Positions 45,970 through 52,213 of a stretch of DNA of 64,000 nt are shown in pieces. The first letter of the stretch is position 1. Each line of letters begins with the position of its first letter. A program made the translations under genes and the position numbers. The notes below the pieces were generated by a model. The model searched no databases. It had not been told where the DNA came from and saw only the letters and a list, made by a program, of their open reading frames with translations. The stretch is from Gemmata massiliana (GTDB lineage Bacteria; Planctomycetota; Planctomycetia; Gemmatales; Gemmataceae): NCBI GenBank assembly GCA_000531095.1, contig HG799462.1:1204948-1268947 (forward strand), written 5' to 3'.

Positions 45970-48048
45970 ATGAACCTGCTCGTGACGTGGAAAAAGGTAC
46001 TGCTGTTCGGTGCCTTCGGTGCGGTCGGCTGTTTGGCCGGCTGGCTCGTCGGCGAGCCGCTCGTGTGGGCGTCCCGATCGGTCGCGGAAGCGGCCGGGGC
46101 CAAGGACGCCCCGTCGCTCATCTCCAAACCGGCGCCCCAATTCGCCGAACCGCCCCCGCTCCCCAACGACTTCCGCGAGCGCGTTGAGAAGGCTGGCGGG
46201 AAGTCCGGAGACGTGCAGCTCTCGCTCATCTGGTACAACGCTAACGACCTCGACTTGTACTGCAAAGACCCGAACGGCGACGTCGTTTTCTACAAGAACC
46301 CGCGCGTACTTAGCGGCGGCGAATTGGACGTGGACGCGAACGCCGGCACGACGCGCAGCGGCCTCCCCACGGTACTGACCACCGAGCCGGTCGAGAACAT
46401 TTACTGGCCGAAGGGCGGCGCACCAGCCGGTCGCTATCAGGTGTTCGTGGTGTAAGCCGCCCACCGCCCAGCGACCGGGGCGCCCAACGCGACCAAGTAC
46501 AAGGTGAACGTCCTCCACGACGGTCAGCGGTACGAGTTTACAGGAACCATCGAGCACGGCGGCACACAGCGGAACGAGCGCCTGATTTACGAGTTCGAGC
46601 TGAAGCCTCGGCTCGAACTGTTGGCCCCCGACGAAGTGAATTTGCTCCCGGCCGCGCCCGCGATCAAACTTCCGGTCGTGATTCGGCGGACGTACTACAA
46701 GGGACCGGTCGAGGTGCGAGCCGAGAACCTACCGGAAGGTATAGCCGCGAGCAAACTCACCATTCCCGAAGGCGAGAATGCGGGCGAAATCGAACTCCAG
46801 GCCGTTGAAGGCGCGAAGGAAATCAAGAAGGCCACTATCAAGTTTGTCGCTACCGGCGACAGCCTCGATTCGTCGACCAGCGTGCAGGTTGCCACACTCA
46901 AGTCGGCCGTCGCGTTTTCTCTTCTCGCAACGCTTTCCACTGGCGCGTGGACGGCACTGCTCGCGATCGGGTTGTGTCTCGCACTCCTGGCCGGGCAGAA
47001 CAAGTACCTCGGCAAACCGTTGTTCGCGTCGAGCCGCATTCCGCTCCGGACCGTTATTGTGGGCGCTGGGGCGGCCGGCTTCGTGTCGGGGAGCGTCGGA
47101 CAGTTGCTCTTTTTTGCGCTGCTCGCGAGCGGCGCCGCGAACCTCGGTTTCCTGGTTGGCTGGGTGCTCCTCGGTGCGCTCCTCGGGTGGGGCATCAGTC
47201 GCTTCGTTCCGAACCTAGACGGCGTAAAGGCGGCGCTTGCGGGCTTGGGCGGTGGGTTGCTCGGTGCGGGCGCGTTCTTGCTCCTGTCCGAACTCGCACA
47301 GTGGACCGGGCGCTTCGGTGGTGCGGTGATACTCGGATTCTGTATCGGGCTAATGGTCGCGGTGGTCGAAGCCGCGTTCCGGCGCGCGTGGATCGAAGTG
47401 CGCTACGGTGAGCGCGAAATAATCACCGTGAACCTCGGTGCCGAACCGGTGCGGATTGGAGGCGATGCGCAAGCCTGCACCGTTTGGGCACGCGGAGCCG
47501 CTTCGATCGCTCTCAAATACTGGATTCGCGACGGGCAGGTGCAGTGTGCGGACGTGCCCGCGAAGCAAGAAACGCCCGTCGCGGACGGTGACACGCGGAC
47601 GGCCGGCAACGTAACCGTGATCGTGCGCACGAGCAACGCCGTTGCCTCAACAGAAGACACGCGGCCGACCGTGGCGCATGTGTCCACGCCCACGGCCCCC
47701 GCGCCGGTGCTACCGGAACTCGTGGTTACGCCGCCCCCTCCTGCGCCGCCTGCTCCATTTGATTACGACGACGGGCTGCCGATGCCGCTGTCTCCTCCTC
47801 CCCCCGCGCGCCCCGCGGTGACGTCCATTCTCGATCTGGACGACGCACCGGCTCAGACAGTGCGGTCAACTAGCGCGGCGCCCGCTCCGTCGAAATCTTC
47901 GGCCCCGTCAGCACCCGTCGCGGCCCCGCGCCCAGCTCCGGCGAATACACCCAATTCCAATGCTGCGGACGTGTGCCCGACGTGCGGTCGGAAGGTGCCC
48001 GGGCGCACCGGCGCCCGATACTGTGTGGTCTGCGACCGGACGTTTTGA
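45970..48048 (+). pseudogene. DUF2135-like membrane protein with zinc ribbon, in-frame TAA
   Basis: From ATG 45970 the protein has an N-terminal helix and then a DUF2135/YfaP-like domain (VQLSLIWYNANDLDLYCKDP, GGELDVDANAG, ENIYWPKGGAPAGRYQVFVV). A TAA at 46453-46455 interrupts the frame, and the same frame continues as AAHRPATGAPNATKYKVNV and beyond. The later part has about five transmembrane helices (46905-47375), an FHA-like beta segment (EPVRIGGDAQACTVWARG; weak), a Pro-rich linker and a zinc ribbon CPTCGRK ... YCVVC. A Tyr codon would fit at the stop, since related domains read VFVVYY-type there. Translation could restart at GTG 46504. Either a nonsense mutation or a base error is possible. 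Confidence 0.7.
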
Positions 48049-48125: not shown

Positions 48126-49022
48126 ATGCCCTACGATATGCAGATCGATCGCTCGAATCCCGGGTGCATTGTGTTCCTGGTGGACCTGTCCAACTCGATG
48201 CTGGACGGGATCGCGGGCACGCAGCGGGCGAAGATGGACACCGTTTCCACCGCCATCAACCGGTTCTTCCAGGAACTCATCACGAGCTGCGAAAAGGGCG
48301 AAGAGAAGCCGCGCAACTACTTCGACGTGGGCCTGATCGGGTACACCACCGACGCCAACGGGGTCGCCATCGTCCGCCCGCTGTTCCAGGGCGCGCTGTC
48401 CGGGCGCGACCTCGTTTCTATCAGCGAACTGTACGACAACCCGCTCGAAATCGAGCAGCGGCGCAAGAAGGAGTTCGTGGACGACGGCGCCGGCGGGCTC
48501 ACGGAAATGGAGCGCCAGATCGCGTTCCCGGTCTGGTTCCGCTCGCCGGCCCAGGGCGAGATGTTCGGCACGCCGATGTGTACCGCGCTCGGGTACTGCA
48601 AGCAGGTGATCCAGACGTGGATCGACGCCCACTCGGGCAGCTTCCCGCCGATGGTCATCAACCTGACTGACGGCGAGTCCACCGACGGGGTACCGGTGCC
48701 GTTCGCCGAAGAACTCAAGGGGCTGGCGACCGCGGACGGTAACGTGTTGCTGTTCAACTGCCACCTGTCCGGGCGCGACGCACAACCCGTGTTCCTCCCA
48801 CCGACCGAGGGGCAGTTGCCCGACGAGTACGCCCGCGACCTGTTCGGCATGTCCAGCCCACTGCCGGACAAACTGCGGCACATGGCCGAGGTGAAAGGCA
48901 TTTCCGCGCCTTTGGGGTGCAAGGCGATGGCGTTCAACGCGGACGCGGTGAGCCTGCTCAAGCTCCTGAACGTCGGCACCCAGGTCGTCGCAGCCGCCAC
49001 TCTCCCGCCGCACCTGCGGTAA
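48126..49022 (+). CDS. VWA-domain protein (TerY-like)
   Basis: ATG 48126 is preceded by GAGGAG and gives 298 residues; an in-frame upstream extension lies in the previous gene's end. The protein is almost entirely a VWA domain with an intact MIDAS: GCIVFLVDLSNSMLDGIAG, then FDVGLIGYTTDANG, MFGTPMCTALGYC (the conserved Thr) and MVINLTDGESTDG. This layout resembles TerY-type soluble VWA proteins found with PP2C phosphatases. It lies between the DUF2135 membrane gene and a VWA-like/PP2C protein on the same strand, so the three probably form one module. It has no signal peptide and should be cytoplasmic. Confidence 0.85.
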   Translation: MPYDMQIDRSNPGCIVFLVDLSNSMLDGIAGTQRAKMDTVSTAINRFFQELITSCEKGEEKPRNYFDVGLIGYTTDANGVAIVRPLFQGALSGRDLVSISELYDNPLEIEQRRKKEFVDDGAGGLTEMERQIAFPVWFRSPAQGEMFGTPMCTALGYCKQVIQTWIDAHSGSFPPMVINLTDGESTDGVPVPFAEELKGLATADGNVLLFNCHLSGRDAQPVFLPPTEGQLPDEYARDLFGMSSPLPDKLRHMAEVKGISAPLGCKAMAFNADAVSLLKLLNVGTQVVAAATLPPHLR

Positions 49023-49128
49023 CCAACGGTTCCAGGTTCCAAGTCCCAGAGTTCCCGGTTGAAGTCGGAACTTGGTCTTGTGTGCTTTAAACTTGGAACC
49101 TGGGAACTCTGGACCTGGAACTCGGATA
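49023..49128. repeat. TTCCAGG-rich imperfect inverted repeat
   Basis: The 106-base gap between the VWA gene and the PP2C gene contains GGTTCCAGGTTCCAAG near 49027 and, in reverse complement, a related CCAGGTTCCAAG-type sequence near 49090-49120. Pairing is imperfect, with several short hairpins. A terminator role is possible; no T-run is visible. Confidence 0.45.
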
Positions 49129-50889
49129 ATGGACCCGATCTCCGCCGATCCGCCCCCCGGCTGTGTCGTACTGCTGCTCAGCCTGTCGGCCGAGATGACC
49201 GCGAACGTGGTCACCGAAACCGGCGCTTTGACGGCGGCCGCGGCGGAACGGCGCCTGGCCGCGGGGGTCGTCGAAGGGCTGGTGAGCGCGGTCGCGGCCG
49301 GGCACGCGACGGGACCGATCGACGTGGCCGTTCTGGGCTACCGCGCGCACGAGGACGGTGCATTTCAACTGATCTCGCTGCTGCCGGTCGGTGACCCGAA
49401 GCCGCAATTTCTCCCGCTCGCACAACTCGCGCGAATGTTCGCGCTCGAACACGCGACGACCGCGGACCAGCCGCGCGAGTGGGTCACGGCACCCGAGTGC
49501 GAGGGGGATGCGTGTGCGGCCCCGGCGCTCGCTCGCGTGTATCAGATGGTATCGGTGTGGCTCACCGGCCGGTTCGCGTCGCGTGCGCCGGTTGTGGTTC
49601 ACTGCACTACCGCGGGCGCGCTCAACGAAACGTACTTTCGGACCGCGCGCTCGCTGCGCCTGCTCGCAACAACCCACGGGTTGCCGCGTTTGCTGCACTA
49701 CGTGTTCGATCCGGAACCGGAGAGCGAGGTCGTTGAGCGGCTCGCGGACGTTTCGGCCGAACTACCCGCGAAGGAAGGCCCAACGCGGCGCGCGGTGTTC
49801 GTCAATTCGTGGGACATCCGCGATCCGCTGAGCGCGATTTTCTCCCACGCCCCACAAAGAGACACGATTCCTTGGCGCCGCGGCCGCGCGGGGTTTCGCA
49901 CGACCACGACGATGTGGACCCAGAAATTGGGGAACGCGCCGGACCAGTGGGAAGACGCATTCGCGCTGGACGAATTGACCAGCGCGACGGCCGTGTCCGA
50001 CGGGGCCAGTGCGGGCATCTTTTGTAGCATTTGGGCGCAGCAGTTGAGCCGGCGGTTCCTTTCCGACCGGCCCGACGCGCGCGACCCGGCCGCACTGAAC
50101 CGGTGGGTGAACGATCTGCGTACCGAGTGGCGCACGGCGATCAACTACGACAACTTGAACTGGTCGAAGCAGGCGAAGGTCGATCAAGTGGGCGCGGCAG
50201 CGACTCTATTGGGACTGGAACTCGGCCCCGCGGACGCACAGGGCCGGCGCCCGTGGCGCGCGTGTGCGGTCGGCGACGCGAGTCTCTTTTGGGTCCGCGC
50301 CAACCGATTGCTCGCGACGTTTCCGGTGGTCGCGGCCGATCAGTTCGGGTCCGCGCCGCTTTTAGTCCGATCGAATCCGGGGTTCCGAACGCTTGCCCTC
50401 GCCGCGGCCGGGGTGTGCGAACCCGACGACCGGTTCGTGCTCGCGACCGATGCCGTTGCCGCGCGCCTGTTCCGGAGCATGGTGGCCGGCTACGACCTGG
50501 ATTGGGGCCGGTTCGAGGCGCTCGACGAGGTCGACTGGTGCGCGGAGATGGACGCGCTCCGCAAATCGAACGACATGGTGAACGACGACTGCACGCTCAT
50601 CGTGCTCCGCGTCAACGAATTTACGGGCACGGCCGAGGTGCCCGACTTCGGGGAAGGTGAAGAACAGGAAGACCTTCCGTTTGCTGAAACGGAACCGTTC
50701 GCCGAAGACATCGAAGACCCGGAGCCGGCGCACCCGGTCGCTAGCTCTGCGCGTTCGGCCGAAGCGGACCTCACCGCGGACGACATCGACGACTCGATGA
50801 TCGAGGAGCCTTCCGACCTGCTGGAACCGGGACCAGAAGAACTCCCGCCGACCGACGACTCCCCGAAATCCACGGACCCGAGCAACTGA
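49129..50889 (+). CDS. PP2C-like phosphatase with N-terminal degenerate VWA-like domain
   Basis: ATG 49129 gives 586 residues. Residues about 1-220 follow the VWA protein next door: GCVVLLLSLSAEM aligns with GCIVFLVDLSNSM, IDVAVLGYRAHEDG with FDVGLIGYTTDANG, and APVVVHCTTAGAL with PPMVINLTDGEST. All MIDAS acids are lost here. The PP2C part (about 240-500) has VSDGASAGIFCS, ACAVGDASLFWVR, RFVLATDAVAARLF and DDCTLIVLRV, corresponding to the metal-binding motifs of the family, with acids retained at VSDG and DDCT. The last 80 residues are acidic and Pro-rich. A phosphatase that uses a dead VWA domain for partner contact is likely. Confidence 0.7.
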   Translation: MDPISADPPPGCVVLLLSLSAEMTANVVTETGALTAAAAERRLAAGVVEGLVSAVAAGHATGPIDVAVLGYRAHEDGAFQLISLLPVGDPKPQFLPLAQLARMFALEHATTADQPREWVTAPECEGDACAAPALARVYQMVSVWLTGRFASRAPVVVHCTTAGALNETYFRTARSLRLLATTHGLPRLLHYVFDPEPESEVVERLADVSAELPAKEGPTRRAVFVNSWDIRDPLSAIFSHAPQRDTIPWRRGRAGFRTTTTMWTQKLGNAPDQWEDAFALDELTSATAVSDGASAGIFCSIWAQQLSRRFLSDRPDARDPAALNRWVNDLRTEWRTAINYDNLNWSKQAKVDQVGAAATLLGLELGPADAQGRRPWRACAVGDASLFWVRANRLLATFPVVAADQFGSAPLLVRSNPGFRTLALAAAGVCEPDDRFVLATDAVAARLFRSMVAGYDLDWGRFEALDEVDWCAEMDALRKSNDMVNDDCTLIVLRVNEFTGTAEVPDFGEGEEQEDLPFAETEPFAEDIEDPEPAHPVASSARSAEADLTADDIDDSMIEEPSDLLEPGPEELPPTDDSPKSTDPSN

Positions 50890-50932: not shown

Positions 50933-52213
50933 TTACACTTTCGGCAACTCGAAGCCCTTGCGGTACTCGCGGCCCAAGAGTTTGTTCGCTTCGGGCGAGT
51001 CGGTCGTCTCGGTCTGGACGTCGAACTTCAGCACCTTACCGGTGCGGAACGCGATGTTGCCGAGGTGACACAACCGCGTGCTCTTGTGCCCCTCCTCGAT
51101 GTCCGCGTTCGGTTGTGCGTCCCCGCGGATCGCGTCGATGAAATTTTTCTGGTGGGCCTTCAGCATGTCGGGGCCGCTCGGCTCCTTCACCTCTTCGCCG
51201 TCGCGGACGTGCCAGCCGTTGTTGTCGAAAAGGAGCGTCCCCTTCTCGCCGTGCAGGATCACGCCATACGACATTTTCTCTGGCCCGTTCTTCTCCCATA
51301 CGCGGTGCTCCCACACCACCGTACAACCGGGGAACTCGAACGTCGCGGTCTGCGTGTCGGGCGTCTCCTGATCGTCGTCGAAGACGTATTTACCACCCAT
51401 CGAGGAGATCCGCGTGGGTGCGTCGAGGCCGAGGACGTTGCGGATCTGGTCCAGTCCGTGGATACCGTTGTTACCGAGTTCGCCGGTGCCGAGTTCCCAG
51501 AACCAGTGCCAGTTGTAATGGAACCGGTTCGCGTTGAACGGGCGCGCCGGCGCCGGCCCTAAAAAGAGGTCGTAGTCGACACTCTTCGGCGGCGCGGCTT
51601 CGTCCGCTTTCTTGCCGATCGGCTTACGGCTCCCCGCGATCCACGTGCGCGCGAACGGCACCTTCCCGAGCTTGCCGGCTTTGATGAATTCGCGCGCGGC
51701 AGCCACGTTGGTGGAACTCCGGCGCTGGGTGCCGGCCTGGATCACCACCTTATACTTGCGCGCGGCCTGCACCATGCGCCGGCCTTCGAGCAGGTCGTGC
51801 GAAACGGGCTTCTCGACGTACACGTGCTTCCCGCGCTCCGCGGCCCAGATCGTCGCGAGCGCGTGCCAGTGGTCCGGTGCCGACACGACCACCGCTGTCA
51901 CCGACTTGTCTTCCAGTACCTTGCGGATGTCGGTTTCGACTTTCGGCGGCGACTCGGGGTTCTTGAGTGCGTCGAGTACGGGCTTCACCATCGCCGGATC
52001 GGGATCAACGACGTGCGAAATCTCGACACCGGGCACGGACGCGAAGCCGGGCACGAGCTGCTTGCCGCGCGTGCGCAGGCCCATCGCCGCGAGCCGGACC
52101 TTTTCGTTCGGCTTGTCCGCGGCGCGGTTGTAGGAAGCCGCGGACAGCGTGAGAGCGGACGTGGCGAGGAACTGACGACGAGTTGCGGACACGGCAGCGC
52201 TCCGGGGAGACAT
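50933..52213 (-). CDS. Tat-exported Gfo/Idh/MocA oxidoreductase
   Basis: The 426-residue protein has a twin-arginine signal (ATRRQFLATSALTLSAA) near residues 10-26. The N-terminal Rossmann domain (about 35-155) includes VRLAAMGLRTRGKQL in place of the usual GxGxxG loop, and the middle shows the family EKP motif (YVEKPVSHDLLEGRR). The C-terminal domain includes HWFWELGTGELGNNGIHGLD, with the GNNGIH segment found in planctomycete members. These exported enzymes oxidise sugars or cyclitols with NAD(P), but the substrate is unknown. It is divergent from a GH32 glycosidase with a gap of 66 bases, so a common sugar-degradation role is likely. Confidence 0.9.
   Translation of the reverse strand: MSPRSAAVSATRRQFLATSALTLSAASYNRAADKPNEKVRLAAMGLRTRGKQLVPGFASVPGVEISHVVDPDPAMVKPVLDALKNPESPPKVETDIRKVLEDKSVTAVVVSAPDHWHALATIWAAERGKHVYVEKPVSHDLLEGRRMVQAARKYKVVIQAGTQRRSSTNVAAAREFIKAGKLGKVPFARTWIAGSRKPIGKKADEAAPPKSVDYDLFLGPAPARPFNANRFHYNWHWFWELGTGELGNNGIHGLDQIRNVLGLDAPTRISSMGGKYVFDDDQETPDTQTATFEFPGCTVVWEHRVWEKNGPEKMSYGVILHGEKGTLLFDNNGWHVRDGEEVKEPSGPDMLKAHQKNFIDAIRGDAQPNADIEEGHKSTRLCHLGNIAFRTGKVLKFDVQTETTDSPEANKLLGREYRKGFELPKV

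What the first reader, a model, noticed from the sequence alone, without database searches (positions are those of the whole stretch)
49129..50889. PP2C-like phosphatase carrying a VWA-like domain that has lost its metal site
The first about 220 residues of the PP2C protein align with the neighbouring VWA protein (48126-49022): GCVVLLLSLSAEM with GCIVFLVDLSNSM, IDVAVLGYRAHEDG with FDVGLIGYTTDANG, and APVVVHCTTAGAL with PPMVINLTDGEST. All three MIDAS positions are changed in the fusion and intact in the neighbour. This suggests an internal duplication in which one copy became a regulatory or dimerisation module for a phosphatase. The locus recalls TerY-type VWA plus PP2C systems described for tellurite/phosphorylation triads, but with a pseudo-VWA fused to the phosphatase. 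No kinase gene is in the window.
Basis: partly seen in the sequence, partly recalled or inferred. Interest (0 to 1): 0.85.

Follow-up and report, generated by a model that had tools for sequence, protein, structure and literature searches.

The report
Phosphatase fused to dead TerY domain
In one family of planctomycete bacteria, a protein phosphatase carries at its front a worn-out copy of its neighbour's metal-binding domain, kept by evolution but without the metal site, which offers a test of how such phosphatases are steered to their targets.

Summary
Residues 10-242 of the PP2C protein (49129-50889) are predicted with good confidence as a VWA fold, and their closest relative is the neighbouring TerY gene. 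Four of five metal-site (MIDAS) residues are replaced in the window protein; one serine remains. In 22 fusions from 22 genomes of one planctomycete family the first metal-binding Asp is never present, while TerY, the gene upstream in 20 of 20 testable loci, keeps its site. The fused PP2Cs group together, so one fusion event is likely. The domain is under purifying selection, yet its former metal loops are no more conserved than the rest of it; in TerY they are about twice as conserved. The PP2C metal residues are intact. In seven relatives a TerY-P-type kinase lies about 8-11 kb upstream, in several with GAP1 and GTPase genes. In the window genome the kinase lies 1.13 Mb away; GAP1 and GTPase were not found. 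Best reading: a variant TerY-P phosphorylation module, derived from a GAP1-N2-type cluster, whose phosphatase is held in its complex by a metal-independent pseudo-VWA. Docking is inferred, not shown. New variant of a known kind.

The parts
49129..50889 (+). pseudo-VWA::PP2C fusion protein, 586 aa
   Evidence: fusion in 22 genomes
49156..49854 (+). pseudo-VWA domain (residues about 10-242), TerY-derived, MIDAS lost
   Evidence: AlphaFold2 of residues 1-262: pLDDT 87.4, pTM 0.86; VIA Z 17.5, rmsd 2.6, 169 aligned to 7n1o; hhalign to TerY E 2.6e-15
49180..49194 (+). former DxSxS: S18-L19-S20-A21-E22 (TerY: D-L-S-N-S)
   Evidence: alignment; first Asp kept in 0 of 22 fusions
49510..49512 (+). former MIDAS Thr, now A128
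   Evidence: Thr kept in 0 of 22 in the aligned column; in L020, L024 and L026 a Thr lies one column away
49609..49611 (+). former MIDAS Asp of strand 4, now T161
   Evidence: Asp kept in 5 of 22
49891..50619 (+). PP2C phosphatase domain (residues 255-497), acidic metal residues D276, D291, D383, D441, D486/D487 present (assignment of these as the PP2C metal residues is recalled)
   Evidence: PADLOC PP2C 6.5e-24; VIA Z 19.1, rmsd 2.9, 207 aligned to 6ae9_A; D276 and D291 in 22 of 22 rows, D383, D441, D486 and D487 in 21 of 22, the other row (L021) being cut by its contig end; also invariant in 9 standalone PP2Cs
50620..50886 (+). variable C-terminal tail rich in acidic residues (residues 498-586)
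   Evidence: 30-92% identical in four pairs
48126..49022 (+). TerY: VWA protein with intact MIDAS (D20, S22, S24, T149, D182), 298 aa
   Evidence: PADLOC TerY 1.5e-77; of 17 related loci examined, 15 are 80-99% identical and two 56-58% (L041, L046, L050, L052 and L053 were left out of that call)
45970..48048 (+). upstream operon partner: one ORF in relatives, interrupted here by an in-frame TAA at 46453-46455; hydrophobic segments and a C-terminal CxxC..CxxC zinc-ribbon-like end (both by eye)
   Evidence: only weak Pfam hits below cut-off (DUF2135 0.025 in L042; DZR 0.053 in the window)
49029..49121 (+). inverted repeat between TerY and the fusion, foldable as a hairpin
   Evidence: role unknown

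Best explanation
It is the phosphatase of a variant TerY-P phosphorylation module (TerY VWA + PP2C + STK_OB-type kinase) that sits, in fuller form, in a GAP1-N2/DO-GTPase2 gene cluster of relatives in the same planctomycete family. Supported by calls: a VWA domain of TerY descent is fused in front of a PP2C; the first metal-site Asp is missing in all 22 known fusions; TerY beside it keeps the site; the domain is under purifying selection; the PP2C metal residues are intact. Inferred: the kinase and this PP2C act on the same partner proteins. TerY supplies metal-dependent peptide binding. The pseudo-VWA works through faces other than the old metal face as a permanent docking domain that holds the phosphatase in the complex with TerY, the kinase or the membrane/zinc-ribbon partner, so that dephosphorylation no longer depends on metal-gated recruitment.
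For: Fold. TerY descent; in the tree the non-operon TerYs split off from operon TerYs plus pseudo-VWAs with 100/100 support. One group of fused PP2Cs, 100/99 over 21 fused and 19 standalone rows. MIDAS tally. Old metal loops in the fusions as variable as the rest of the domain (1.37 and 1.37 bits), in TerY more conserved (0.25 against 0.55). dN/dS 0.14-0.48 for the pseudo-VWA, 0.08-0.20 PP2C, 0.02-0.12 TerY, four pairs. TerY upstream in 20 of 20 testable loci. Kinase ortholog in 18 of 19 genus genomes and about 8-11 kb upstream in seven relatives. The window genome has one match to TerY, one to STK_OB and no second match to the fusion protein's PP2C. Two-domain model pTM 0.89, compatible with fixed packing.
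Against: No binding, complex or activity was tested. Docking by the pseudo-VWA rests on analogy. In the window genome the kinase is not linked and GAP1 and GTPase were not found, so the module may have a reduced role there. The pseudo-VWA evolves several times faster than TerY, which a firm interface need not do. The TerY profile finds the window fusion only at E 0.0025. No tool gave an inter-domain error map. The pseudo-VWA branch in the tree is long, and treekit warned of long branches in both trees.
Confidence: 0.6

Rival explanations
1. The pseudo-VWA is an autoinhibitory or allosteric domain: it packs on its own PP2C and gates the active site until a partner pulls it off.
For: The two-domain model has pTM 0.89 with both domains well predicted, as expected for a fixed contact.
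Against: Inter-domain error and active-site occlusion could not be examined; the stretch between the domains is less confident (pLDDT 66-69 in blocks 241-260); the standalone PP2Cs of the family do without such a domain.
Confidence: 0.2
2. The pseudo-VWA pairs with TerY as an asymmetric heterodimer, one partner with and one without a metal site, in the manner of VWA pairs such as Ku70/Ku80 (that comparison is recalled).
For: TerY is the upstream neighbour in 20 of 20 testable loci; shared ancestry; Ku80 is among the structural matches.
Against: TerY is nearly frozen in sequence while the pseudo-VWA drifts; no interface was predicted.
Confidence: 0.15
3. The N-terminal domain is a decaying relic with no function.
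For: Fast divergence, metal loops no more conserved than the rest.
Against: dN/dS 0.14-0.48 in four pairs, invariant residues across 17 rows, kept in 19 of 19 genus genomes, well-folded model.
Confidence: 0.04
4. The domain still binds metal through replaced residues.
For: S20 kept in 20 of 22; an Asp at position 166 in 20 of 22; some members keep the strand-4 Asp.
Against: First Asp 0 of 22, replaced by Arg in 12; Thr 0 of 22 in the aligned column; metal positions vary widely.
Confidence: 0.04

Closest known systems
TerY-P (TerY-phosphorylation triad; VWA + PP2C + STK with zinc ribbon or OB fold)
   Same: TerY and PP2C match PADLOC models; an STK_OB-type kinase is in the genome and about 8-11 kb upstream in seven relatives.
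   Different: PP2C is fused to a MIDAS-less TerY-type VWA; kinase unlinked in the window genome; where linked, several other genes lie between kinase and TerY.
GAP1-N2-type GTPase-centred systems with kinase, PP2C and standalone vWA (Kaur et al. 2020, PMC7159879; section 29 read; passages)
   Same: Relatives' clusters hold a GAP1-N2 protein (1.3e-10 in L045; GAP1-M there is below its cut-off), kinase, TerY and PP2C; a DO-GTPase2 lies near the kinase in several.
   Different: The paper calls the kinase/PP2C/vWA theme restricted to actinobacteria and its vWA standalone; here it is planctomycete and a second, degenerate VWA is fused to the PP2C. GAP1 and GTPase not found in the window genome.
Type III-A CoCoNuT operons with duplicated TerY-like VWA genes (PMC11090510, passages read)
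   Same: TerY VWA duplicated in one operon; one copy keeps MIDAS, the other lacks a MIDAS residue.
   Different: There the second copy lacks the Thr and is slightly shorter, and no fusion to the phosphatase is mentioned in the passages read; here it is fused and lacks most of the site.
E. coli PphC (YegK) / YegI phosphatase-kinase pair (passage in PMC13232886; primary paper not held)
   Same: PP2C that dephosphorylates a kinase encoded next to it. That YegL is the adjacent VWA protein is recalled.
   Different: No fused VWA is mentioned in the passage read; membership of that family was not tested.

Membership tests
TerY-P triad | TerY-like VWA protein with MIDAS | tested here: met
   48126-49022, PADLOC TerY 1.5e-77; all five residues present
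TerY-P triad | PP2C of the triad's family with intact catalytic acids | tested here: met
   PADLOC PP2C 6.5e-24; acids invariant
TerY-P triad | STK_OB / zinc-ribbon kinase in the genome | tested here: met
   G000:C1:121093-121998, 1.6e-51 to PADLOC STK_OB, profile positions 3-289 of 562 only; the rest of that profile (the OB part) did not match
TerY-P triad | three genes adjacent | tested here: not met
   TerY and PP2C adjacent, kinase 1.13 Mb away; about 8-11 kb apart in seven relatives, with genes between
TerY-P triad | anti-phage or tellurite phenotype | not testable with these tools
   no experiment; anti-phage activity of other TerY-P systems is reported in PMC10889362 and PMC7699616 (passages)
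VWA domain superfamily | VWA alpha/beta fold | tested here: met
VWA domain superfamily | MIDAS motif DxSxS...T...D (not kept by all VWA domains) | tested here: not met
   one of five residues kept in the window protein
VWA domain superfamily | match to a Pfam VWA model | tested here: not met
   no VWA model listed for the fusion or for residues 1-240 at E up to 1 (HMMER filters drop most matches above about 0.1)
PP2C / PPM phosphatases | PP2C fold | tested here: met
   6ae9_A Z 19.1, rmsd 2.9, 207 aligned
PP2C / PPM phosphatases | phosphatase activity | not testable with these tools
   needs assay
GAP1-N2 GTPase-centred system | GAP1-N2 protein and DO-GTPase in the genome or gene neighbourhood | tested here: not met
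   window genome: 0 matches to GAP1-N2 and 0 to DO-GTPase2. In relatives: GTPase, kinase and GAP1 in one stretch in G022; GTPase next to kinase in G004 and G006, where GAP1 was not searched genome-wide

The most novel reading that the evidence does not exclude
TerY and the pseudo-VWA form an obligate unequal pair, one metal-dependent arm and one dead arm, that holds kinase and phosphatase on the same membrane-bound partner. The dead arm was made by duplicating TerY and freezes the phosphatase in place, turning a metal-gated recruitable phosphatase into a resident one. This would be a pseudo-VWA signalling subunit, parallel to pseudokinases, derived from a planctomycete GAP1-N2 cluster.
Probability: 0.2. 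Interest if true: 0.7.

Novelty: new variant of a known kind. Interest (0 to 1): 0.52.

Why it matters
What the VWA protein does in TerY-P modules is unsettled; one paper read in passages calls the triad a hypothesised metal-sensing phosphorylation switch (PMC11090510). A natural fusion of the phosphatase to a metal-blind copy of that VWA separates the scaffold role of the domain from its metal role, so each can be tested in one pair of neighbouring genes. It also extends the kinase/PP2C/vWA theme of GAP1-N2 systems, described as restricted to actinobacteria (PMC7159879), to planctomycetes, where the fusion is present in 19 of 19 genomes of this genus.

Tried and rejected
Chance alignment: rejected. 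Descent from another VWA family: the VWA_4 membrane proteins of related clusters did not match, and in the window genome only the fusion and TerY match the N-terminal profile at E 0.001 (where 24 of 69 first-look candidates were scored). No wider set of VWA families was compared. The pseudo-VWAs sit on a long branch (about 2 changes per site), so their exact point of attachment is not resolved; the operon TerYs are one group in 20% of bootstraps, treekit warned that PV_L024 and PV_L026 may join falsely, and two rows have unusual composition. It gave similar long-branch warnings for the PP2C tree.

Row choice: TerY and PP2C rows for the trees were those over a score and length limit from loci that I listed by name, not every hit. 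Two TerY rows (L049, L056) repeat the genomes of L026 and L007; they stayed in the tree and were left out of the tallies. Four operon TerY rows lack the DxSxS part because their locus is cut. L021 is cut by its contig end, lacks most of the PP2C and is absent from the PP2C tree.

Solved-structure sequence searches with the N-terminal profile, TerY, the whole-fusion profile and the PP2C domain gave no usable relatives. NCBIfam and PHROGs gave no family for the fusion. Pfam gave none for it either, and the Pfam PP2C_2 search of the genome listed four other places, not the fusion. Plasmids: two PP2C-only matches at 23-24% identity.

Wider spread: 392 genomes of the phylum gave only the window's own match at E 1e-6, but only 6 candidates per genome were scored, so absence elsewhere is not proven.

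Cluster exceptions: in G014 (L048) and G024 (L036) the zinc-ribbon membrane gene is not upstream of TerY; in G004 (L051) no GAP1 match was seen between kinase and TerY. DO-GTPase2 was found in 7 of 13 genomes searched; G014, G015 and G018, whose kinase is linked or nearly so, gave none at E 0.001, though a frame beside the G018 kinase has a weak match below cut-off (1.4e-4). GAP1-N2 was absent in 5 of 19 genus genomes (G000, G009, G011, G013, G020).

Not in print: (TerY, PP2C and vWA together: 0 papers); the listings show no title or abstract about a PP2C fused to a MIDAS-less VWA. The 2012 Ter-system paper by Anantharaman and co-authors is not held, so an earlier mention there cannot be excluded.

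Full report
What is there. The window holds TerY (48126-49022, 298 aa) and, 106 bases after its stop codon, a 586-residue protein (49129-50889). PADLOC models identify TerY (1.5e-77) and, in residues 269-496 of the second protein, the PP2C of TerY-type systems (6.5e-24). Pfam and NCBIfam list no family for the fusion at E up to 1. The next gene downstream by homology is on the other strand (50933-52213).

The N-terminal domain is a VWA fold. AlphaFold2 on 17 aligned N-termini gives mean pLDDT 87.4 and pTM 0.86. The best structural match is the CMG2 VWA domain (7n1o: Z 17.5, rmsd 2.6, 169 aligned); the 50 listed rows are mostly recognisable VWA or I-domain proteins, Ku80 and TFIIH subunits among them. 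The two-domain model (residues 1-504) has pLDDT 85.8 and pTM 0.89 and matches PP2C phosphatases in 255-498 (6ae9_A: Z 19.1, rmsd 2.9, 207 aligned) and VWA domains in the first half.

It descends from TerY. BLASTP to the neighbour: E 5e-5, above all of 1000 shuffles. Profile to profile: E 2.6e-15 over 218 columns. In the own genome the N-terminal profile matches only the fusion and TerY at E 0.001 (24 of 69 candidates scored). The reverse, TerY profile against the window, finds the fusion only at 0.0025. In a tree of 61 rows (22 pseudo-VWAs, 22 operon TerY rows including two duplicates, 17 other TerYs) the other TerYs are split from operon TerYs plus pseudo-VWAs with 100/100 support, and the pseudo-VWAs are one group with 100/99. 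This fits duplication of the operon's own TerY, but the tree is unrooted and the long branch leaves the joining point open. Fused PP2Cs (21 rows) are one group against 19 standalone ones (100/99), so one fusion event suffices.

The metal site is gone. Among 22 fusions the first Asp of DxSxS is present in 0 (Arg 12, Ser 4, Pro 3, Ala 2, Gln 1), the first Ser in 20, the second Ser in 4, the Thr in 0 of the aligned column, and the strand-4 Asp in 5. Operon TerYs keep all five wherever the residue is covered (16 of 16 for the first three, 20 of 20 for the last two). In L020, L024 and L026 a Thr lies one column away, so the Thr count depends on the alignment. The loops around the old site have mean entropy 1.37 bits, equal to the rest of the domain, whereas in TerY they are more conserved than the rest (0.25 against 0.55). 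The domain is still constrained: dN/dS 0.14-0.48 against the four relatives compared, 0.08-0.20 for the PP2C domain and 0.02-0.12 for TerY (simple pairwise estimates).

How widespread. In 95 genomes of the family, 46 match the fusion protein: all 19 genomes of the window's genus and 3 others (G004, G006, G088) over both domains, and 24 in the PP2C part only. Named relatives carry titles such as Gemmata, Gemmataceae, Planctomycetia, Isosphaera and Singulisphaera, all planctomycete and nearly all MAGs (16 loci with the N-terminus, one PP2C fragment). In 102 genomes of the order the N-terminal profile matches 33; the 11 beyond the 22 fusions match at far lower scores (at best 74.8 bits; the fusions score 252 or more). 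I read the ORFs of eight of the eleven (L079-L086), and each holds a TerY-like VWA frame, in L080 broken by a stop.

The setting. TerY is the upstream neighbour of the fusion in 20 of 20 loci where the contig reaches far enough, with gaps of 12-657 bases; in G014 a 144-aa frame lies between. In G015, G022 and G023 the order is kinase, GAP1, membrane protein, zinc-ribbon membrane protein, TerY, fusion, secreted-type protein, VWA_4/zinc-ribbon membrane proteins (families); other genomes keep parts of it, with the exceptions told under Tried and rejected. A DO-GTPase2 lies next to the kinase in G004, G006, G010, G022 and G026 and about 5 kb from it in G021 and G023, and beside the G024 kinase. 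STK_OB matches are found in 19 of 19 genus genomes. An ortholog of the window genome's kinase was confirmed in 18 of 19, the window's own included (53-94% identity over about 800 residues in 13 others and over 376 in G025; three by comparison with the L045 kinase); G020 has only weak matches. The kinase lies about 8-11 kb upstream of the fusion, on the same strand, in G004, G006, G014, G015, G021, G022 and G023; in G018 the contig with kinase, GAP1 and TerY ends just after TerY and the fusion begins another contig. In the window genome and in G009, G010, G011 and G026 it is far away on the same contig; in the remaining drafts it is on another contig, and for G088 it was not resolved. The window genome has one TerY, one STK_OB match, no second PP2C matching the fusion, and no match to GAP1-N2 or DO-GTPase2. 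So the window seems to show the rump of a larger cluster with its kinase elsewhere.

Mechanism. Supported: descent, fold, loss of the metal site, selection, linkage in relatives. Inferred: kinase and PP2C act on common partners, as PphC dephosphorylates YegI in E. coli (passage in PMC13232886). The pseudo-VWA keeps the fold but not the metal face; the simplest role is metal-independent docking of the phosphatase through other faces. Autoinhibition and pairing with TerY are live rivals.

Known work. Kaur and co-authors (PMC7159879, section 29 read in full) describe GAP1-N2 neighbourhoods with kinase, PP2C and standalone vWA, restricted to actinobacteria in their survey, and note vWA domains lacking one or both aspartates in other conflict systems (passages). 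The CoCoNuT paper (PMC11090510, passages) describes duplicated TerY VWA genes of which one lacks the Thr. TerY-P has reported anti-phage activity in Pseudomonas (PMC10889362, passages). Presence in 19 of 19 genus genomes with a slowly changing TerY looks less like a patchy defence island than like a resident signalling module; that is my inference.

Noticed in passing
window 46453-46455: The zinc-ribbon membrane gene upstream of TerY is interrupted by an in-frame TAA in the window; the same gene is open in G009, G011 and other relatives. Real mutation or sequence error not decided.
   Followed up: partly
window 49029-49121: Long inverted repeat in the gap between TerY and the fusion; 49018-49135 folds at -49.3 kcal/mol, z -3.54, 1 of 200 shuffles as good. 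A 24-base piece of its 3' arm occurs once in the window.
   Followed up: partly
L116, L120, L127, L134: Frames of 630-674 aa in loci found with GAP1-N2 also carry a TerY domain in their second half: apparent GAP1-TerY fusions in G010, G018, G024 and G026.
   Followed up: no
L082 922-1767: A TerY-like gene outside the fusion clade (G028) has lost the first Asp and the Thr of MIDAS by itself.
   Followed up: no
L042 14157-16622; L044, L045, L048 downstream regions: One to three tandem membrane proteins follow the fusion in relatives; the L042 one has a VWA_4 domain (2.9e-8), and they share their second half with the gene upstream of TerY.
   Followed up: partly
L044-L046, L051 (G015, G022, G018, G004): These fusions keep the strand-4 TDG or SDG motif though the first Asp is lost, so the metal site may have decayed in steps.
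   Followed up: partly
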